A stretch of 64,000 nucleotides of DNA from Profundicola chukchiensis (GTDB lineage: Bacteria > Bacteroidota > Bacteroidia > Flavobacteriales > Weeksellaceae), in contig NZ_JANAIE010000005.1 of NCBI RefSeq assembly GCF_029664245.1, positions 62,001 to 126,000 of the forward strand. The letters are read 5' to 3'. A model generated the notes under the pieces. It was not told the origin of the DNA. It ran no database searches and worked only from the letters and a program-made list of their open reading frames with translations. A program made the position numbers and the translations under genes. Shown piece by piece: positions 49,015 to 57,032 of this stretch. Positions within the stretch are counted from its first letter, which is position 1, and each line of letters opens with the position of its first letter.

Positions 49015-52000
49015 TTATCCTGCAACTAATTTCGCAGCATCGTTCCAAAGATAATGTGGCATAGGTTCTTTCAATTCCCATTTTATACTCATTGGTTTGG
49101 AACCTTCATGTTCTATATACTTAGCAGGACCAATAAATACATATCCCTGAGTAAAGCCATCAGCATCCTTTTTACTTTCACGAATAAATAAAAGTATTGT
49201 TTTACCATTTGTTTCCTGGTTTATATAAGAAAGTCCAACGGAGCTATTTGGTGATGTCTTATTTTGGGATTGCCAATGGAATAAAGTTTCATTGATGGCA
49301 TAATCATCATACATTGTTGTGGGAGAAAAATCCTCTTCTGATTTCTTTAAGTTTATAAATAAAGCTTCAATATTCTGCTCCCTGTTTAAAGCAACACCCT
49401 CTCGATTTGTGCTTAGCTTTGTAATTGTAGATAAACCTATTGCTACAAGTATTTGATCTCTAGTATAACGAGAGTGTATCTTTAATGGAAAAGAATCGCT
49501 TACCTCTGTGAATGGAATCTCTTCATATCCAATTTGATTTATCTTGACATTTAGAAAAGATTGCATTTCAGCTACCATTTCTTTGTTTTCTCCAATCTGT
49601 TTAATTCCATCGATTAAAGTTAAGCCAGGAACAACATCTTGATAAAAGTCGTAATAAAGCATTAAGACCATTAAATTGTTTTCTGATTTTTTAGGAAGTT
49701 TATTTAAATCAAACTCTTCCTCAATTAAATTAAGAATAAACTTGAAATAACTGATAGACTCTGTTACCATCCATTTTTTGCTAATCATGGATTTGTATCT
49801 ATCGAAGTTTATTTGTTCAAACTTTAAAGCAAAAGCTTCGCTTTTTAAGAAGGTGAAAGTGTGATTTTTATAAATATGCTTTAGTTCAAGATTATAAATT
49901 TTTAAAAAGTTTTCTAGTGTTAAAGCCAATGTTGTGTGGTTAGTAAAGTTATTCATTAATCTTATTAACCTTCTCTTATTCATATCAGTCGCTTGACGAA
50001 TATTGTTAAGAATATGTTCTTTAGCTTGTTTTTCTAATACAATTGAACTACCTAATGGAAGGTGAGGGAAGTCTTTTTCAATTTCGTGCTTAACCGTGGT
50101 GTTCGTTTTTCCAATAAGTGCTCTAAATTTATTTTCATAATCATATTCTTTGCGAGCATGACCAACAAAATCCAAAACTGTAAGCACATCTTTTCCTTCC
50201 TGTAATCTTAAGCCACGCCCAAGTTGTTGAAGAAAAATAGTCAAACTTTCAGTTGGTCGTAAAAATAAAACTGTATCAATTTCAGGAATATCTATTCCTT
50301 CATTAAATATATCAACAACAAACAAATAGTTTATCTCGCCAGCTTTAAAGTTATGAATGATATCCATTCGATCTTGACTATTTTCAGAAGTAAGATATTC
50401 CGCTTTTAAACCATTCTTCTCAAACTTTTTCTTCATGAATTTAGCATGTTCTATACTGGCGCAGAACCCTATGGCTTTAACTTCTCTTATGTCTTTGGTG
50501 TATTTATTTAAATTGTCAATTATGTTTCCTACTCTTATATCATTTGCAGTTAAAACTTTGGTTAACTCTTGTGTGTCATATCTCCCGTTATTCCATTTTA
50601 TTTTTGAATAATCAATTGAATCTGAAATTCCAAAGTATTGAAAAGGACACAAGATTTTATGATTAAGAGCATCCGGAAGGCGAATTTCAGCTGCCGTTCT
50701 ATAATTGAAATCTTTTAGAATATCTTTCCCATCCATTCTTTCTGGAGTAGCTGTTAATCCAAGCAAAATCTTTGGTTGAAAGTAATCAATTACTTTTTGG
50801 TAGGTTTTTGCAGATGAATGGTGTACCTCGTCTAGAATAATGTAATCGTAATAATTTGGACTGGAGAATGATTCTAATTGATTTGTTAGCGTTTGAATAG
50901 TTGCGAAAATTGCATTTTTCTGAGTTGGCATATACCCATCTCCGAAAAGTTCACCGAAATTTTGATCTTTCAATACATTTCTGAATGTATGTAATGATTG
51001 TCGTAAAATTTCAATCCGATGAGCAATAAATAAAAACTTTGCTGTAGGATTATTTTGTCTATAATTTTTAAAATCAAAGGCTGAGATCATGGTTTTACCA
51101 GTTCCTGTAGCAGCGACAACTAGGTTTCTCCACGAATTATGAACCTCTCGTTCGATTTTTAGTTTTTCTAGAATTTCTGATTGATAATGGTAGGGTTTTA
51201 AATCAAAGAAATTGACAATCTCTTGGGTTGATTTTCCAAATTTACTTTGCAAAAGGGATTTTCCTAAATCATCAAATTTGCTAGAATCATATAATTCAAA
51301 CTCCGCATCATTCCAATAACTCTCAAATGTCTTTTTAAACTTATCAATTATATGTGGAATTTCTTTGGTCGTAACTTTTACATTCCATTCCAGTCCATCT
51401 GTAAGAGCAGATCTCGAAAAGTTCGATGAACCAATGTAACCTGTATGAAAACCGGAATTTCTATAAAACAAATAAGCCTTAGCGTGTAAGCGCTCGTTTG
51501 AATTGTTGTAAGAAATTTTTATTTCAGTATTTGGAAGTTTGTTTAGTTCTTCGATGGCTTTTGCATCTGTTGCGCCCATATAAGTGGTAGTAATAACACG
51601 TAATTTGCCACCTCGAGAAGTAAATTCCTTAAAAGCTTCTCGTAGAATCACAATGGCTTTCCATTTTATAAAAGAAACTAGTAAGTCAACTCTGTCAGCT
51701 GATAAAATTTCTTTCTTTAATTCACTTTCAAGTGAGATACCGACATTACCACCAGTGAATAATTCACTATGCGTTAGACGTGTCGATGGCATAATCTCCT
51801 TTAGCTTTAAATCAAAGTTTACAAAATGACTATCAGCTTTTGAGAAGACTGCATTCAGGATTTCTCCCTCTACGACTACTAAGTCATCTTCAAAGTTCTC
51901 ACTTTCAATCTCATCCTTTAATAAAGTAATTATTTTATTAGCTATAGCAATTTGCTGTTCAATTAAATTCTTTTTCTTCAACAAATCAAAAGCCCTTTTG

Positions 52001-52149
52001 ATAGTGTTGTGTAGATGTTGAGACAGAAGTTTTGAAGCCTCAGCTTTGTCAATCGAAGTTTTATTAATATAAAAGTCCTTTTTCCCTAGTTCCTCAATCT
52101 TTTGAGAAACTATTTGAGTAATTAACTCTTCATAAATGCCATTTTTCAT
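49015..52149 (-). CDS. PLD nuclease - SF2 helicase - DUF3427-like fusion protein
   Basis: A 1044-residue protein. Residues 1-120 are helical and charged. Residues about 140-290 form a phospholipase D-like nuclease domain with one HKD motif (HAKAYLF, His222 and Lys224; GSSNFSRSAL about 240-249), so it would act as a dimer. Residues about 315-690 form an SF2 helicase: Walker A AATGTGKT (346-353), LDEVHHSS (439-446), LTATPERMDG and QQLGRGLRLQ (641-650). The remaining 350 residues resemble DUF3427. The domain order matches a widespread group of restriction/defence-type helicases whose function is not established as far as I know. Its start overlaps the NUDIX gene stop by 4 bp. Confidence 0.9.
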   Translation of the reverse strand: MKNGIYEELITQIVSQKIEELGKKDFYINKTSIDKAEASKLLSQHLHNTIKRAFDLLKKKNLIEQQIAIANKIITLLKDEIESENFEDDLVVVEGEILNAVFSKADSHFVNFDLKLKEIMPSTRLTHSELFTGGNVGISLESELKKEILSADRVDLLVSFIKWKAIVILREAFKEFTSRGGKLRVITTTYMGATDAKAIEELNKLPNTEIKISYNNSNERLHAKAYLFYRNSGFHTGYIGSSNFSRSALTDGLEWNVKVTTKEIPHIIDKFKKTFESYWNDAEFELYDSSKFDDLGKSLLQSKFGKSTQEIVNFFDLKPYHYQSEILEKLKIEREVHNSWRNLVVAATGTGKTMISAFDFKNYRQNNPTAKFLFIAHRIEILRQSLHTFRNVLKDQNFGELFGDGYMPTQKNAIFATIQTLTNQLESFSSPNYYDYIILDEVHHSSAKTYQKVIDYFQPKILLGLTATPERMDGKDILKDFNYRTAAEIRLPDALNHKILCPFQYFGISDSIDYSKIKWNNGRYDTQELTKVLTANDIRVGNIIDNLNKYTKDIREVKAIGFCASIEHAKFMKKKFEKNGLKAEYLTSENSQDRMDIIHNFKAGEINYLFVVDIFNEGIDIPEIDTVLFLRPTESLTIFLQQLGRGLRLQEGKDVLTVLDFVGHARKEYDYENKFRALIGKTNTTVKHEIEKDFPHLPLGSSIVLEKQAKEHILNNIRQATDMNKRRLIRLMNNFTNHTTLALTLENFLKIYNLELKHIYKNHTFTFLKSEAFALKFEQINFDRYKSMISKKWMVTESISYFKFILNLIEEEFDLNKLPKKSENNLMVLMLYYDFYQDVVPGLTLIDGIKQIGENKEMVAEMQSFLNVKINQIGYEEIPFTEVSDSFPLKIHSRYTRDQILVAIGLSTITKLSTNREGVALNREQNIEALFINLKKSEEDFSPTTMYDDYAINETLFHWQSQNKTSPNSSVGLSYINQETNGKTILLFIRESKKDADGFTQGYVFIGPAKYIEHEGSKPMSIKWELKEPMPHYLWNDAAKLVAG

Positions 52150-52535
52150 AAAGTAATGAATTCATTAACTATCGGCACATCTGCCTCGGCCCAGTCGAGT
52201 TCTTGTAATTCGTGTTTATCGAGTAGGCGATGCTGTGCGTGTTCTTTAAGCTTTAATTCTCCTCCAACATATTTGGCAGTGTAGGGAATCAACTCAATAC
52301 TAAAGTCAGGATAATCATGCAATACAGGGTTGAGTCGCTGTAGCACCTCGATATCGATATCCAATTCTTCTTTAATTTCACGTTGAATACATTGCTGCTC
52401 AGATTCATTCGGCTCAATCTTTCCGCCTGGAAACTCCCACTTAAGCGGTAGCTTCATGTTCTCACTTCGTTGAACAGCTAAAATCTTGTCTTGTTGGTGA
52501 ATAATCGCACAAACAACTCTATAATGTGGAATCAT
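52146..52535 (-). CDS. NUDIX hydrolase, MutT-like
   Basis: The 129-residue protein has a complete NUDIX box: GGK at 38-40, then the glutamates of REIKEEL (52-58) followed by a hydrophobic residue at the expected spacing. The core WEFPGGK and the length are those of MutT/8-oxo-dGTP-type (deoxy)nucleoside triphosphate pyrophosphohydrolases. It overlaps the PLD-helicase start by 4 bp (ATGA), so the pair is translationally coupled. A role together with the helicase, rather than general housekeeping, is inferred from this coupling. Confidence 0.92.
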   Translation of the reverse strand: MIPHYRVVCAIIHQQDKILAVQRSENMKLPLKWEFPGGKIEPNESEQQCIQREIKEELDIDIEVLQRLNPVLHDYPDFSIELIPYTAKYVGGELKLKEHAQHRLLDKHELQELDWAEADVPIVNEFITL

Positions 52536-52537
52536 AG

Positions 52538-52864
52538 TTATTCAGAAAATTTATAAGTTTTGATGAATTTATCCAATTCTAAATCATTTTCAAAAGAATA
52601 TTGAGATTCTTTGCCGAATTCAAAGAATTGAACTAAATCTAATATATTGTCAAATACACGAAAGTGTTGCCCCTGATAATTATACACATACATCAGCGCA
52701 TCAGTATTTTTAAAACTGATGATTTCTATGCTTCTGTTAGCTCTCAGATATTTAATCCTAGAATTATTTATAATATTCATGAGGTAGTTTAAGGCAATAA
52801 ATTGGTTGACCAGTTTTTCGAATTGTTGAGTGTAAATCCAATCAATTTTTGGTTTATAGATCAA
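52538..52864 (-). CDS. Unknown 108-aa protein heading the NUDIX/helicase operon
   Basis: A soluble 108-residue protein with no recognised domain, rich in aromatic and Asn residues (YLMNIINNSR, YVYNYQGQHFRVF). Its stop is 2 bp from the NUDIX start, so the three genes form a tight operon. It could be a regulator, an inhibitor or a third functional subunit. No signal peptide or membrane segment is seen. The start ATG is at 52864; the upstream 200 bp are AT-rich and gene-free. Confidence 0.7.
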   Translation of the reverse strand: MIYKPKIDWIYTQQFEKLVNQFIALNYLMNIINNSRIKYLRANRSIEIISFKNTDALMYVYNYQGQHFRVFDNILDLVQFFEFGKESQYSFENDLELDKFIKTYKFSE

Positions 52865-53072: not shown

Positions 53073-53807
53073 ATGAAGATCACGCAAAAATTAAAAACAT
53101 CTTTCCTAGCCTTTGGCGTTTTGGGATTATTGGTTTCTTGTTCAGATGACGACACAAGCGACAGTCTTAGTCCCGACCAAGGTAGATTGAGCATAGCTGC
53201 TATGGCGACTTATCAGCCAGGAGTTGCCGACAAAACCAGTAGAAACGGAAGTTTAGAGCTAAGTAGTTTCAAGGTTAATTTCACCGAGATTGAGTTAGAA
53301 TTTGATGACATTATAGATGATGATAATTTCTACGATAGCGACGACGATGTAGAGTTAGAAGGACCTTTTGAGATGGACTTGCTTTCTGGTACACCTATGG
53401 AGTTTGTGAATTTGGAGCTGCCTAATGGAAGGTTAGAAGAGATTGAGTTTGAATTCGATAAGAGTATAGATACCGAGAGCTTGATGCATAACAAGAGTAT
53501 GATGATGGAAGGAAGTATCAATGGTACACCTTTCGTATTTTGGCATGACTTCGAAGAGGAGATTGAGCTTGAATTTGAGGCAGGTGATGAGAATTCTATT
53601 ATTTCGCATGATCATAATTCAGTGGTAATAAATTTTGATTTAAACGCAGTATTTAACTTAGACTCTAGTGTAGATTTATCTACAGCTGTAGATGGCAACG
53701 GAGATGGTTTGATTGAGATCAGCCCAGAAGACGAAGATGGAAATCAGGATTTAGCAGAAGAGATTAAAGAAGCTATTAAAGATCAGATTGATCTACTTGA
53801 GGACTAA
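53073..53807 (+). CDS. Acidic lipoprotein, possibly DUF4382-like
   Basis: The 244-residue protein has a lipoprotein signal ending LLVSC (Cys23), followed by an exceptionally acidic mature part (runs such as DDIIDDDNFYDSDDD) and a DGNGDGLIEISPEDEDGN segment that looks like a calcium-binding EF-hand or dockerin-like loop. The arrangement of strands with ELSSFKVNFTEIEL resembles DUF4382 lipoproteins, but that is uncertain. It is monocistronic with its own terminator. Confidence 0.7.
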   Translation: MKITQKLKTSFLAFGVLGLLVSCSDDDTSDSLSPDQGRLSIAAMATYQPGVADKTSRNGSLELSSFKVNFTEIELEFDDIIDDDNFYDSDDDVELEGPFEMDLLSGTPMEFVNLELPNGRLEEIEFEFDKSIDTESLMHNKSMMMEGSINGTPFVFWHDFEEEIELEFEAGDENSIISHDHNSVVINFDLNAVFNLDSSVDLSTAVDGNGDGLIEISPEDEDGNQDLAEEIKEAIKDQIDLLED

Positions 53808-53833
53808 ATTATATTCAATTTAGATTTTAGATT

Positions 53834-53868
53834 CCCTGATGGATTATTTCGTCAGGGTTTTTTTTGTT
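53834..53868 (+). terminator. Terminator after the acidic lipoprotein gene
   Basis: CCCTGATG and CGTCAGGG arms with a run of eight T. Confidence 0.88.
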
Positions 53869-53965
53869 TAGTAGGTGGTAATCAGTAGTTAGTAGGTGGT
53901 AGACAGTAGTCAGTAGTTCGTGTAGGGTGTAGAGTTTTTCTGATTTATGTATTTAAAGTTTTTAT
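53869..53965 (+). repeat. Low-complexity TAGTAGGTGGTA/GTAGGGTGTAG tract
   Basis: Iterated words (TAGTAGGTGGTAATCAGTAGTT, TAGTCAGTAGTT, GTAGGGTGTAGAG) with no coding potential. Related GTTTAGGGTGTAGAG words return at 54070-54100, 55640-55675 and 56200-56235. Confidence 0.55.
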
Positions 53966-53967
53966 TC

Positions 53968-54062
53968 TAGCACCTGTCATGCTGAACTTGATTCAGCATC
54001 TTTTGAAATGAATGGGTTAGTTTTAAGAGATTCCGCATCAAGTGCGGAATGACACTTCGGGT
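53968..54062 (+). repeat. Paired hairpin element (A-B unit)
   Basis: Hairpin A (TGCTGAACTTGATTCAGCA near 53980) and hairpin B (ATTCCGCATCAAGTGCGGAAT near 54032) separated by a conserved spacer. Confidence 0.88.
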
Positions 54063-54106
54063 ATGTTTGGTTAAGGGTGTAGAGTATAAGGTGTAGAGTT
54101 TATCTG

Positions 54107-54252
54107 TCACATTGAGTGAATTTTTCCTTAGAAAAATTTGTATCGAAATGTCGACAGAAAGGAGGTTAGTGTACTTTTCAATTCTTTTCTTTATTCTCTT
54201 TTCTAAGTCTTCAATACAATTTTGTTGCACAAAATCACTCAGTCTGACAAGA
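54107..54252. repeat. CACATTGAGTG repeat, inverted pair
   Basis: A forward copy (GTCACATTGAGTG, TTTTTCCTTAGAAAAA, TGTATCGAAATGTCGACAGA) is followed by an inverted relative (TCAATACAATTTTGTTGCAC, AAAATCACTCAGTCTGAC). Further copies lie at 55679-55735 and, inverted, at 56293-56352. Confidence 0.6.
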
Positions 54253-54330
54253 GGCTTTACGACCTTAAATTTTAGGCCAATTGAACAATATTAAACTACT
54301 TTTAAACAACCTTTAAACCACTTGAATATG

Positions 54331-54545
54331 AGATTCCGCATCAAGTGCGGAATGACGCTTCGGGTTTAGATTTAGCGGTTGTATTTAAGCATCGCCTGTC
54401 ATGCTGAACTTGATTCAGCATCTTTTGGAATGAATGGGTTAGTTTTAAGAGATTCCGCATCAAGTGCGGAATGACGCTTCGGGCTTGGATTTGGCGGTTG
54501 TATTTAAGCATCACCTGTCATGCTGAACTTGATTCAGCATCTCTT
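54331..54545 (+). repeat. Two tandem paired-hairpin units
   Basis: Order B-A-B-A (B near 54332 and 54451, exactly 119 bp apart; A near 54398 and 54518). Confidence 0.9.
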
Positions 54546-54678
54546 TTTCTTCTAAACCCAAATTAAATCATTGAAAATCAATAACTAGGAAAAACGACGA
54601 GTAAACTCATTGGTTTCGCTTAGTAGATTTAATGTTAAAGGCGTAAATTAGTGGTGTAGCAATTAGTTAATTAAGATA

Positions 54679-54948
54679 ATGGAACTTAGTTATGTATTAA
54701 ATCGAAATTCTTCTCCAGCATGGGATGTTATATCCTTTGTTGAGATTTTATTTATCTCTCTCCTAAACTTACTTTTTAAGTTTACTCTTGAAGCACCTGA
54801 AAACGTATTAAAATTCCAGGAGGAAATTAATTCTATGGGAATTATTTCGTCTGTGAAAATCTTCTCAATTTTTGACCATGAAAATGGAGTGCAAAATCAT
54901 TTTTGTAAAGCTGAAATTAACTCTTATCGAAGGGGTGTTGTGACTTAA
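54679..54948 (+). CDS. Possible small protein (89 aa), uncertain
   Basis: An 89-codon ORF with one hydrophobic segment (about residues 17-35, VISFVEILFISLLNLLF). No family is recognised and the codon use is not decisive. Its best support is a strong intrinsic terminator 30 bp after the stop on the same strand. It could be a fragment of an older gene in this repeat-rich stretch. Confidence 0.35.
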   Translation: MELSYVLNRNSSPAWDVISFVEILFISLLNLLFKFTLEAPENVLKFQEEINSMGIISSVKIFSIFDHENGVQNHFCKAEINSYRRGVVT

Positions 54949-54974
54949 AACAACGTATAAAAGACATATATCGA

Positions 54975-55010
54975 ATAGCCTGAAATTTTGTTTCAGGCTA
55001 TTTTTTTGCT
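54975..55010 (+). terminator. Strong intrinsic terminator
   Basis: ATAGCCTGAAA and TTTCAGGCTAT (11-bp perfect stem, loop TTTTG), then seven T. Confidence 0.9.
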
Positions 55011-55015
55011 AAAAA

Positions 55016-55166
55016 CATCCGCATTTTCAGTCGCTTTCATCCGCATCTTTTGCAAATTTCATCCGCATAAAGTTGTTACATCATGCGCATAAAGTGTTTT
55101 CATCATCTAGATGAAATAAAATATCATGCAGATGAACTGAAATTTGGTGAAATTCATCTATTTCCA
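55016..55166. repeat. Phased 22-bp array of CATCCGCAT-like motifs
   Basis: CATCCGCAT starts at 55016, 55038 and 55060, CATGCGCAT at 55082, the palindrome CATCTAGATG at 55104 and CATGCAGATG at 55125: four intervals of exactly 22 bp and one of 21 bp. Only the 9-10-bp core is conserved; the filler differs. The array lies just after a terminator and has no gene of its own. The remainder to about 55330 is AT-rich without recognisable features. Confidence 0.75.
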
Positions 55167-55359
55167 ACCTCTAATAGTGCAAATTTTGTTGCAAATATAT
55201 CTCATTTTGGGTCTGTTTTGAGACTAAAAATGGCGTAATTTTACATCATTTTTTGATGATTTTATAGTAAAATACACTTGAATTCAGCAAGATTATAAAT
55301 CAATTTTAACTTGAAAAAATAGTGAGGTTTAGGGTGTAGCGTGTTGGGTTTTCAGTCAC

Positions 55360-55630
55360 TTGGAGGAGATATTAAAAGCTACAAACATTAATCTTTCTTG
55401 TTCATTTTTGCTTGATCAAAAACGAACCAAAAAATCAATCAGAAATAATGTTTTCCCGCCTACCAACTTTTTTATCTTTCTTTATGTTATTTACGTGGCG
55501 GGAACATGGATGATCATCGGCTTGCCTTCCCAGGGCCCAACGGCTATAGGCCGCGGACGCGCACGCTGAACACCATTAAACATGGATTTCTGAAGGGCTC
55601 CGGCTCAAAACTCAAGTCGATAGTAGAATG
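55360..55630 (+). repeat. Dispersed intergenic element with GC-rich segment
   Basis: This stretch (CTTGATCAAAAACGAACCAA near 55410; GGGCCCAACGGCTATAGGCC near 55533; then GAAGGGCTCCGGCTC near 55593) is locally far richer in GC than its surroundings. An ORF can be read through part of it, but its text looks like translated non-coding repeat. From memory it resembles widespread Bacteroidota intergenic repeats; this was not checked. Confidence 0.45.
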
Positions 55631-55678
55631 TAAATGCTTGTTTAGTTTAGGGTGTAGAGTATAAGGTGTAGAGTTTTT

Positions 55679-55735
55679 CTGTCACATTGAGTGTTTTTCT
55701 CGATAGAGAAAAATGTATCGAAATGTCGACAGAAA
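55679..55735 (+). repeat. CACATTGAGTG repeat, forward copy
   Basis: Contains GTCACATTGAGTG, TTTTTCTCGATAGAGAAAAA-like hairpin and TGTATCGAAATGTCGACAGA; same family as 54107-54252. Confidence 0.6.
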
Positions 55736-55837
55736 AGGAGATTGACGTGCTTCGCTTTTCTCTTATATGAGGCTTCGAGTTAAACAACCTTTAAACTATC
55801 TAAACTACTTTTGAACCACCTTTAACCCACTTGAGAA

Positions 55838-56046
55838 TGAGATTCCGCATCAAGTGCGGAATGACGCTACGGGTATGTATTTAGCGGTTGTAGTTAAGCA
55901 CCACGCGTCATGCTGAACTTGATTCAGCATCTTTTGGATTGAATGGGTTAGTTTTAGAGATTCCGCATCGAGTGTGGAATGACGCTTCGGGGTTTCATTT
56001 AACGGAAAGCCAAGGCGCTTGTCATTCCGGGCTAGACCCGGAATAT
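55838..56046 (+). repeat. Paired hairpins with a variant third type
   Basis: B (near 55842), A (near 55910), a B variant (ATTCCGCATCGAGTGTGGAAT near 55961) and a hairpin with different arms (ATTCCGGGCTAGACCCGGAAT near 56025). Confidence 0.85.
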
Positions 56047-56095
56047 AGTTTTAGCTATTCGAAGAAAACTTTTATATCTTATCTCGAAAGTTTGG

Positions 56096-56150
56096 AGCGA
56101 AGAAACTGCTCCTCTTTTAAGGGGAGCTGTCCGTAGGACTGAGGGGTTCT
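56096..56150 (+). repeat. AGGGGAG short repeat element
   Basis: CTCCTCTTTTAAGGGGAG followed by CTGTCCGTAGGACTGAGGGG forms hairpins (CTCC/GGAG, GTCC/GGAC). It resembles a short intergenic element common in this phylum (recollection only). Confidence 0.45.
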
Positions 56151-56292
56151 ACATTAGTATGAAGTAACGAATAGTTAGTGCTTCGTAGTCAGTAATTAGT
56201 TTAGGGTGTAGAGTGTAAGGTTTAGGGTTTAGAGGTTCACAGTGTTGCAGTATGAGGAATAATTCAAAATTTAGAATTCAAAATTTAACAAT

Positions 56293-56352
56293 TCATACTT
56301 GTCTTAGTCTTCGATACAATTTTGTTTCACAAAATCACTCAAACTGAAAAGA
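56293..56352 (-). repeat. CACATTGAGTG repeat, inverted copy
   Basis: TCTTCGATACAATTTTGTTT and CACAAAATCACTCAAACTGA are the reverse-complement form of the family at 54107-54252. Confidence 0.55.
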
Positions 56353-56429
56353 GAGTTTCTACATCGCTTTTTGCTCGGATTTAAAAAATTCCTAAATTGT
56401 AGATTGATTACCAATTAAATAACTCAACT

Positions 56430-57032
56430 ATGAAAACTTTACAACATATCTTGATAGCCTTTTGTCTTTTCAGCATACTTCCGATAAATGGTCAGGAAAT
56501 AAAATCAAGTTCAGAGTCTGCTAATATAAATGTCGAAACAAGTCAAGCTCTTAGAGGGGAAGCAGCTCTTACAAAATCTATTGTTAGAGATTATATTGTT
56601 ACGCGTATAGAGGACTTTAAATTACACAAGGAAATTCGTTCGCAGGGGAATGTAGATGATAAAGCCATTCGTAAGTACTATTCTCAGCGTGAGGTTTTAA
56701 TAGTCCAAATGGGTTGGGAGGTTGAAGAATTTGAAAACACAGAAAATAGAATAAATCAAGTTCTCGCTGGTTTGAAAATAGAGTCCCATATTAGTTCGGA
56801 TGCAGATTTTCAGAATGAAATTAAAGAAATTAATAGCAATCCTTACTTGACGGAAAAGCAGAAAAAGGCTACCATAGAGCTATTAGAATTAGATCGAGAA
56901 AATCGTCGAGCTACTTTCGTAGATCCGATCCAGAAGGATAGACCTGCAGTGATGGCTTATATAAAGGAGTTGCGTCATTTGAAAGATTATTTAGCTGAAA
57001 ATCGTTCAGACCCACCTGTGCTGAGGGACTAA
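56430..57032 (+). CDS. Exported protein of unknown function
   Basis: The 200-residue protein has a signal peptide (about residues 1-21, cleavage after NGQ or near it) and a mostly helical, highly charged mature part (EKQKKATIELLELDRENRRA). No family is recognised. It stands alone in the repeat-rich stretch between two hairpin clusters, with no evident terminator; it could be a strain-specific gene. Confidence 0.65.
   Translation: MKTLQHILIAFCLFSILPINGQEIKSSSESANINVETSQALRGEAALTKSIVRDYIVTRIEDFKLHKEIRSQGNVDDKAIRKYYSQREVLIVQMGWEVEEFENTENRINQVLAGLKIESHISSDADFQNEIKEINSNPYLTEKQKKATIELLELDRENRRATFVDPIQKDRPAVMAYIKELRHLKDYLAENRSDPPVLRD

What the first reader, a model, noticed from the sequence alone, without database searches (positions are those of the whole stretch)
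49015..52864. Three-gene operon: unknown 108-aa protein, NUDIX hydrolase and PLD-helicase-DUF3427 protein
Seen: genes separated by 2 bp and overlapping by 4 bp on one strand, with an HKD nuclease motif, complete SF2 helicase motifs and a complete NUDIX box. Known: PLD and SF2 modules recur in restriction and anti-phage proteins, and NUDIX enzymes cleave nucleotides or signalling molecules. Inference: the three may form a defence or DNA quality-control system in which the NUDIX and small protein control or supply the nuclease-helicase. The neighbourhood (gene remnant on one side, repeat island on the other) fits accessory content.
Basis: partly seen in the sequence, partly recalled or inferred. 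Interest (0 to 1): 0.68.

Follow-up and report, generated by a model that had tools for sequence, protein, structure and literature searches.

The report
Restriction enzyme paired with nucleotide cleaner
The helicase gene encodes a relative of SauUSI, a bacterial enzyme that shreds DNA carrying methylated or hydroxymethylated cytosine, and it is repeatedly found next to a small enzyme with a studied relative that destroys the matching free building blocks (5-methyl- and 5-hydroxymethyl-dCTP), which suggests a two-part defence that polices both the DNA and the nucleotide pool.

Summary
The three ORFs exist as described. The 1044-aa protein is a SauUSI-type (Type IV, modified-cytosine-dependent) restriction enzyme: PLD nuclease, SF2 motor, and a C-terminus that models like SauUSI's coupler and SRA reader (Z 12.3). 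The NUDIX is a real partner: one lies directly beside the helicase in 48 of 100 window-like loci with readable flanks, in 8 of 8 SauUSI-clade loci in Bacteroidota, in 10 of 12 in Bacillota, and at S. aureus SauUSI itself. It sits upstream (often a 4-bp overlap), downstream or tail-to-tail, changes presence at least 23 times on the tree, and is absent beside a third DUF3427 helicase clade (0 of 9). Its second-best solved relative (46% identity) is a B. fragilis enzyme shown by others to hydrolyse 5-methyl-dCTP and 5-hydroxymethyl-dCTP, the free forms of the bases SauUSI attacks. I propose a matched pair: nuclease for modified DNA, NUDIX for modified dCTP, most likely keeping modified cytosine out of self DNA. 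Shown: anatomy, association, fold. Inferred: the NUDIX substrate and guard role. The '108-aa' gene probably starts at an internal ATG (80 aa) and has few relatives. The adjacency is in print for Streptococcus; I found no printed explanation.

The parts
49015..52149 (-). SauUSI-type Type IV restriction enzyme: PLD nuclease, SF2 ATPase, helical coupler, SRA-like reader (1044 aa)
   Evidence: Pfam PLDc_2/ResIII/Helicase_C/DUF3427; PADLOC mREase_IV E 1.6e-222; PDB 7clg SauUSI E 4.7e-85 over residues 147-1014
51313..51696 (-). PLD nuclease domain, residues 152-279 (H222, K224, GSSN240)
50146..51201 (-). SF2 helicase-like motor, residues about 317-668
49042..49509 (-). SRA-like modified-cytosine reader, residues about 881-1036 (pocket F931, I932, D949, W959)
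   Evidence: AlphaFold model of residues 690-1044, mean pLDDT 85.9; VIA-align: SauUSI Z 12.3, then mostly SRA domains at Z under 8; pocket columns
52146..52535 (-). NUDIX hydrolase (129 aa), PADLOC PDC-S07; predicted 5-substituted-dCTP pyrophosphatase
   Evidence: partner of the helicase in many genomes
52356..52424 (-). NUDIX box GKIEPNESEQQCIQREIKEELDI (final Gly replaced by Asp)
52538..52780 (-). small protein, probably 80 aa from the ATG at 52780 (listed as 108 aa from a TTG at 52864); function unknown, doubtful member
   Evidence: three Gelidibacter relatives, 39-41% identical, align from this ATG, upstream of the same cassette; apart from a 50-aa fragment no others found

Best explanation
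This is a two-gene, two-level restriction module. The large protein is a Type IV restriction enzyme: its SRA-like C-terminus binds DNA with 5-substituted cytosine, its SF2 motor translocates, and its PLD domain cuts. The NUDIX cleaves the matching free nucleotides (5-methyl-dCTP, 5-hydroxymethyl-dCTP) to monophosphates. The likeliest reason for the pairing is self-protection: modified cytidine nucleotides released from shredded foreign DNA or from RNA turnover would otherwise be rephosphorylated, built into the chromosome and turned into targets of the cell's own enzyme. Shown here: domain anatomy, SRA-like fold, recurrent adjacency, partner exchange. Established by others: SauUSI cuts 5mC/5hmC DNA; the B. 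fragilis relative of the NUDIX hydrolyses 5-Me-dCTP and 5-hm-dCTP. Inferred: that the window proteins keep these activities, and the guard role.
For: Helicase identity: PADLOC mREase_IV E 1.6e-222; SauUSI 7clg E 4.7e-85. Reader: the modelled C-terminus matches SauUSI at Z 12.3 and then mostly SRA domains; pocket residues F, I, D and W are kept. Association: 8 of 8 SauUSI-clade loci in Bacteroidota, 10 of 12 in Bacillota in three arrangements, 48 of 100 window-like loci, S. aureus SauUSI itself with a 1-bp gap (identities confirmed), 0 of 9 of a third DUF3427 helicase clade. At least 23 changes of NUDIX presence on the helicase tree. Partner exchange: the window NUDIX does not group with those of its four nearest helicase kin (AU p 0.0027). 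Substrate: B. fragilis Q5LBB1/3GWY, 46% identical to the window NUDIX, has kcat/Km 4.8e6 for 5-Me-dCTP and 4.4e6 for 5-MeOH-dCTP (PMC5158307, passages). Among 107 session ORFs that match 3GWY, the 32 best distinct ones are all NUDIXes beside such restriction genes (the set is rich in such loci, so this is a lean, not a proof). The own genome has no C5-cytosine methyltransferase match at E 1e-20.
Against: Half of the window-like helicases lack the NUDIX: 52 of 100, and 15 of 21 in Bacillota. The related genome G281 has the helicase, no adjacent NUDIX and no PDC-S07 match anywhere at E 1e-28, and it also carries a C5-methyltransferase, so a guard is not strictly essential. L110 has a truncated NUDIX beside an intact helicase. 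In window-like proteins the residue matching SauUSI Tyr831, proposed to contact the methyl group, is Val/Ala/Thr/Ile, so modification preference may differ. The window NUDIX is not in the same subclade as 3GWY, and seven Bacillota partner NUDIXes (L136, L139, L140, L178, L186, L190, L196) fall nearer NudG, MutT and RppH than 3GWY (weakly resolved), so not every partner need share its substrate. No substrate was tested. I could not see what lies beside 3GWY in B. fragilis.
Confidence: 0.5

Rival explanations
1. Phage starvation arm: the NUDIX drains 5-hydroxymethyl-dCTP (or 5-methyl-dCTP) that phages make to replace cytosine, so a phage either loses its modification or is cut by the nuclease. 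Same enzymes, offensive rather than protective.
For: 3GWY is about as fast on 5-MeOH-dCTP as on 5-Me-dCTP; PADLOC lists the family as a phage-defence candidate, PDC-S07; PDC-S07 and RM type IV were the only consistently co-localised pair of 24 in S. suis, 23/23 (PMC12813430, passages).
Against: 5-hm-dCTP is not, to my knowledge, an ordinary host metabolite, yet the pairing recurs in many lineages; removing the modification also removes the nuclease's target; in the passages I saw, no phage test of PDC-S07 alone.
Confidence: 0.25
2. General housecleaning: the NUDIX is a MutT-like enzyme (8-oxo-dGTP or other damaged nucleotides) that travels with restriction genes because it reduces mutation or replication stress during attack, with no link to modified cytosine.
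For: NCBIfam does not decide: PRK08999 86.5, NudG-type PRK10546 83.2, MutT 72.6 bits, none at its cut-off; PDC-S07 also hits many NUDIXes away from restriction genes; seven Bacillota partners fall nearer MutT, RppH and NudG.
Against: The window NUDIX is 46% identical to 3GWY and to the S. aureus SauUSI neighbour, against 33% to NudG, 36% to Bdellovibrio RppH and 32% to Bartonella MutT; the pairing was seen with the SRA-bearing restriction clades and not with the third clade.
Confidence: 0.15
3. The NUDIX is a regulator or passenger: adjacency comes from operon inheritance and co-mobilisation, or the NUDIX senses a signal that licenses the nuclease.
For: Possible translational coupling (4-bp overlap in 29 of 56 upstream cases); about half of the window-like loci do without it.
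Against: Upstream, downstream and tail-to-tail arrangements and at least 23 changes on the tree are hard to explain without selection for the pair; partner swap in the window lineage.
Confidence: 0.1

Closest known systems
SauUSI (S. aureus Type IV restriction enzyme, PDB 7clg)
   Same: PLD - SF2 - coupler - SRA-like layout; H and K of the PLD site and F, I, D, W of the modified-base pocket; a NUDIX directly beside it, in S. aureus too
   Different: The window protein belongs to a separate, fully supported clade, has about 100 extra N-terminal residues, and has Val in place of the proposed methyl-contact Tyr831
B. fragilis Q5LBB1 / PDB 3GWY, 5-Me-dCTP and 5-hm-dCTP pyrophosphatase
   Same: 46% identity, NUDIX core, Asp in place of the last Gly of the box
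   Different: Different subclade of the NUDIX tree; genomic neighbours of 3GWY not seen; substrate of the window enzyme untested
PADLOC candidates PDC-S07 and mREase_IV
   Same: Both window proteins match these models
   Different: As seen here they are separate entries, a phage-defence candidate and a Type IV enzyme; the pairing and substrate link are not part of that
E. coli NudG (PDB 2RRK), 5-methyl-dCTP pyrophosphatase
   Same: NUDIX family and core, reported preference for 5-methyl-dCTP over CTP (PMC5158307, passages)
   Different: 33% identity; not known to me as a restriction partner

Membership tests
SauUSI-type Type IV restriction enzyme | PLD nuclease domain at the N-terminal side (HxK, GSSN) | tested here: met
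   PLDc_2 at residues 152-279; H222, K224, GSSN240; the acidic residue is not conserved
SauUSI-type Type IV restriction enzyme | SF2 helicase-like ATPase | tested here: met
   ResIII and Helicase_C, motifs
SauUSI-type Type IV restriction enzyme | coupler plus SRA-fold reader at the C-terminus | tested here: met
   model matches 7clg 617-953 at Z 12.3, rmsd 4.6, 271 aligned; next rows mostly SRA domains at Z under 8
SauUSI-type Type IV restriction enzyme | 5mC pocket residues of SauUSI (M829, Y831, F841, I842, D858, W868) | tested here: inconclusive
   F, I, D, W kept; Y831 is Val and M829 is Glu in the window
SauUSI-type Type IV restriction enzyme | ATP-dependent cleavage of 5mC/5hmC DNA and not of unmodified DNA | not testable with these tools
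   biochemistry needed
5-substituted-dCTP pyrophosphatase (3GWY / NudG type NUDIX) | NUDIX core GX5EX7REUXEE | tested here: met
   residues 38-57
5-substituted-dCTP pyrophosphatase (3GWY / NudG type NUDIX) | groups with the characterised enzyme rather than with MutT/RppH | tested here: inconclusive
   46% to 3GWY against 32-36% to MutT, NudG and RppH, but a different subclade
5-substituted-dCTP pyrophosphatase (3GWY / NudG type NUDIX) | kcat/Km above 1e6 on 5-Me-dCTP or 5-hm-dCTP | not testable with these tools
   enzyme assay needed
PADLOC PDC-S07 | profile match over the full length | tested here: met
   E 7.3e-51, positions 4-129 of 135; the model also hits many NUDIXes away from restriction genes
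PADLOC PDC-M30A (small protein) | profile match over most of its 284 positions | tested here: not met
   E 4.1e-05 over positions 44-108 only; a Gelidibacter relative gives no match at 0.01

The most novel reading that the evidence does not exclude
Type IV restriction has an unexplained second arm: SauUSI-type enzymes, including S. aureus SauUSI itself, work with a dedicated NUDIX that destroys the free dCTP form of the very base they attack in DNA, so immunity is enforced on both polymer and precursor pool. It either prevents self-restriction or denies phages their modified nucleotide.
Probability: 0.5. Interest if true: 0.82.

Novelty: new variant of a known kind. Interest (0 to 1): 0.66.

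Why it matters
How a cell carrying a nuclease against modified cytosine avoids damage from modified nucleotides in its own pool is, to my knowledge, rarely asked. A matched nucleotide hydrolase gives that question a concrete, testable answer. It would also give a substrate-level function to PDC-S07 where it sits beside RM type IV, and mean that SauUSI, a major barrier to gene transfer in staphylococci, has a natural partner that the SauUSI papers I could see do not discuss.

Tried and rejected
Dense defence island: 54 neighbour proteins from 19 loci (a hand-picked part of the 120 from 20 loci listed). 47 PADLOC models match at 1e-20; of the 25 shown all but one match a single protein. Of 84 Pfam families at 1e-5 the 25 shown are largely housekeeping. 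Not supported as a rule.

Small protein as a conserved third component: relatives only beside the window cassette and three Gelidibacter cassettes, plus a 50-aa fragment in L155. The fold model (mean pLDDT 72.8, 4 sequences) has no PDB match at E 0.001 (best E 0.52); no plasmid match. Left unexplained.

Phage-borne cassette: three relatives of the helicase C-terminal region in viral contigs. Eight phage records hold a NUDIX of this kind; the one opened, a staphylococcal record, holds S. aureus SauUSI beside it and looks like chromosome. Not supported.

Is 3GWY itself a SauUSI neighbour? Searches (8 genomes; 92 genomes) found nothing nearer than 52% identity; open.

All NUDIXes of window-like Bacteroidota helicases as one clade: not rejected (AU p 0.089, 26 of 43 rows). 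The group in the other AU test was chosen after seeing a tree, so its p is optimistic.

C5-methyltransferase avoidance: 11 of 30 helicase-bearing genomes against 20 of 30 without have PF00145 at 1e-20 (Fisher p 0.038). The genomes were picked by hand from earlier lists, so this is weak.

Rows dropped: the table leaves out rows under 600 aa (L069, L071, L148, L151, L159, L161, L193) and duplicates (L163-L165, L167-L170, L188), and sets aside 22 'edge' rows. L134, a helicase broken in two with an NUDIX before the first piece, counts as 'none' there; L110, with a truncated NUDIX, counts as having one. The tree further drops edge rows, rows under 750 or over 1299 aa, L160 and L210.
Full report
What is there. 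Three minus-strand ORFs lie at 49015-52149, 52146-52535 and 52538-52864. The large protein carries PLDc_2, ResIII, Helicase_C and DUF3427. PADLOC scores it as a Type IV modified-DNA restriction enzyme (E 1.6e-222), and its best solved relative is PDB 7clg (E 4.7e-85 over residues 147-1014), the SauUSI structure (title). Published work, of which I saw the abstract of one paper and passages of both, says that SauUSI cuts DNA with 5mC or 5hmC, needs ATP or dATP, and reads the base with a C-terminal SRA-fold domain (PMC3874153; PMC7913695). AlphaFold of the window residues 690-1044 (mean pLDDT 85.9) matches SauUSI best (Z 12.3), followed mostly by SRA domains of KRYPTONITE, AspBHI, SUVH5, MspJI, LpnPI, AbaSI, PvuRts1I, UHRF1 and TagI. 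Those rows have Z under 8, a level that the tool warns may reflect only a common arrangement, so the SauUSI match is the one that counts. The pocket residues matching SauUSI F841, I842, D858 and W868 are kept in the window; Y831 is Val and M829 is Glu.

The NUDIX. It matches PADLOC PDC-S07 (E 7.3e-51). Its best solved relatives are 5x1x ('Mutator mutT protein') and 3gwy, both at about 93 bits and both 46% identical, against 32-36% for MutT of Bartonella, E. coli NudG and RppH of Bdellovibrio. The organisms of 3gwy and 2rrk come from PMC5389931 and PMC5158307 (passages); those of 3hhj, and that of 3ees is recalled. The B. fragilis enzyme 3gwy was assayed by others: kcat/Km 4.8e6 for 5-Me-dCTP, 4.4e6 for 5-MeOH-dCTP, 6.7e6 for 5-Me-CTP, 8.5e4 for 5-OH-dCTP, and much lower activity on canonical NTPs (PMC5158307, passages). 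I read 5-MeOH-dCTP as 5-hydroxymethyl-dCTP. These are the free forms of the bases that SauUSI attacks in DNA. In S. aureus sequence the NUDIX stops one base before SauUSI starts, in both records opened. The restriction protein there matches 7clg over all 953 residues (2065.7 bits), and the NUDIX of the plasmid record is identical to 5x1x over all 130 residues.

The association. I call an NUDIX adjacent if it scores over 50 bits against the window, S. aureus or B. fragilis NUDIX and lies within 150 bp. Helicase-first searches give these counts. Bacteroidota, SauUSI-clade model: 8 of 395 genomes have it, and all 8 loci have the NUDIX, from a 55-bp overlap to a 4-bp gap. Bacillota: 62 of 338 genomes match the window-type model. 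I took all 12 hits with open frames of 930 aa or more that were not among the 30 loci returned, plus 8 shorter ones, in 20 stretches. All 12 are in the SauUSI clade and 10 have the NUDIX: four upstream on the same strand, two downstream on the same strand, four tail-to-tail. SauUSI-clade members too far from that model would have been missed. Window-like clade, all searches together: 48 of 100 loci with readable flanks, 41 upstream and 7 downstream; 19 further rows end at a contig edge. By source: 11 of 25 in the Bacteroidota sample, 31 of 53 among named loci, 6 of 21 in the Bacillota top 30, 0 of 1 plasmid. Helicases of a third DUF3427 clade, all under 905 aa: 0 of 9 on the tree. L203, sister to the SauUSI clade, has a tail-to-tail NUDIX. 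Five of the SauUSI-clade rows were fetched through the NUDIX; the rates above do not rest on them, since the same genomes came up in the helicase-first search.

Not just inheritance. On a FastTree tree of 127 helicases the window-like clade (95) and the SauUSI clade (22) each lie on one side of a fully supported branch; NUDIX presence needs at least 23 changes and arrangement at least 27. Of 56 upstream same-strand cases, 29 overlap by exactly 4 bp. NUDIXes and helicases have exchanged partners. The window NUDIX groups with L154 and not with those of its four nearest helicase kin (AU p 0.0027, group chosen after seeing a tree). L100 and L124, window-like helicases, carry NUDIXes inside a supported set with four SauUSI-clade partners. 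Among 107 session ORFs that match 3GWY, the 32 best distinct ones are all NUDIXes beside such restriction genes. In the tree that also holds stand-alone NUDIXes, 3GWY falls inside a set whose other 15 members are all such partners (support 96). Both results lean on a session set that is rich in partner loci: 69 of the 93 rows are labelled as partners.

A hint on specificity. The only two SauUSI-clade loci without an NUDIX, L216 and L218, are sisters and are also the only ones with D858 changed (to Asn); their W868 is Ile and Ala. All 20 with an NUDIX keep D858 and 18 keep W868. This is one evolutionary event, so it is a lead only.

Mechanism. Most likely, in my view: the nuclease destroys DNA with 5-substituted cytosine; the NUDIX hydrolyses the corresponding triphosphates, so that nucleotides from degraded foreign DNA or from RNA turnover do not enter the chromosome and create self targets. 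Recycling through kinases is general biochemistry (recalled), not shown here. The rival with the same parts is offensive: draining a phage's 5-hm-dCTP. The own genome has no PF00145 match at 1e-20, as expected for a cell with such a nuclease.

Against. Many window-like helicases have no NUDIX, and the related genome G281 has the helicase, a C5-methyltransferase and no PDC-S07 match. L110 has a truncated NUDIX with an intact helicase. So the NUDIX is helpful, not obligatory. Seven Bacillota partners of window-like helicases fall nearer NudG, MutT and RppH than 3GWY in a weakly resolved tree. The substrate of the window NUDIX is inferred from a 46% relative in another subclade.

The small gene. 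Its three Gelidibacter relatives (39-41% identity) align from an internal ATG, so the gene is probably 80 aa from 52780. They lie 463-494 bp upstream of the NUDIX of the same cassette. No relative outside the window's own genome was found in 100 genomes of the family, 158 of the order or in plasmids; a search of 235 short ORFs near NUDIXes added a 50-aa fragment in L155 (E 1e-8). A PDC-M30A match is weak and partial. I do not count it as an established part.

What is in print. Bell et al. 2020 (PMC7641849, section 11 read whole, other passages; authors recalled) note in a figure legend that small proteins beside SauUSI homologues in Streptococcus are MutT homologues, without proposing a role there. 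A 2026 S. suis survey (PMC12813430, passages) reports PDC-S07 and RM type IV as the only consistently co-localised pair of 24, 23 of 23, without naming the NUDIX function in the passages seen. Searches for SauUSI with Nudix, SauUSI with MutT, Nudix/restriction/5-methyl-dCTP/type IV (15 of 70 listed), pyrophosphohydrolase/type IV restriction/5-hydroxymethylcytosine/nucleotide pool and PDC-S07 with NUDIX showed me no paper that links the pair to 5-methyl- or 5-hydroxymethyl-dCTP; I judged most hits by listing only. A 2025 review describes SauUSI without a partner in the passages seen (PMC12707154). The library holds open-licence papers only, and the original SauUSI paper of 2011 is not in it. 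In Enterobacter PDC-S07 is in 99% of genomes (PMC12851794, passages), which I take for a housekeeping NUDIX; the model alone is no sign of defence.

Verdict.

Noticed in passing
L106, L107, L157 directly upstream of the NUDIX: N-terminal remnants of about 35-45 aa of a C5-cytosine methyltransferase (motif FIDLFAGAGGLSEGF or a variant) stand just before the NUDIX, as if the cassette replaced an m5C restriction-modification locus; only the L157 piece was scanned, and it matches methyltransferase models over residues 2-36 or so.
   Followed up: partly
L120 and L121, upstream of the NUDIX: A Vsr mismatch endonuclease gene (PF03852 in L120) ends 5 bp before the NUDIX in two Cyclobacterium genomes; Vsr normally accompanies m5C methyltransferases (recalled).
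   Followed up: partly
L076:4015-6387: A PDC-S07 NUDIX is fused to a Schlafen-group-3 helicase protein that matches PADLOC PDC-S41, in one 790-aa ORF.
   Followed up: no
L075:2601-6008 (and the longer L080, L081, L087, L089): A SauUSI-clade helicase of 1135 aa carries a C-terminal Peptidase_S24 domain; four others have similar extra length but were not scanned.
   Followed up: no
L112 and L114, upstream of the helicase: Where the NUDIX is missing, an HNH-HIT protein sits upstream; HIT is another nucleotide-hydrolase fold (role recalled).
   Followed up: no
L216 and L218: The two SauUSI-clade loci without a NUDIX are also the two with the pocket Asp changed.
   Followed up: no
window 53800-56500: Cluster of dispersed direct repeats (156, 97 and 89 nt among them) with a CATGCTGAACTTGATTCAGCATCT core.
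   Followed up: no
L207 (Pseudoalteromonas plasmid): The window-like helicase occurs on four large Pseudoalteromonas plasmids; in the one opened there is no NUDIX beside it and an HNH endonuclease gene follows.
   Followed up: no
search results: The PADLOC PDC-S07 model also hits NUDIX domains in long ORFs (about 350-430 aa), possibly MutY by their length (not scanned), so counts based on it alone overstate defence.
   Followed up: no
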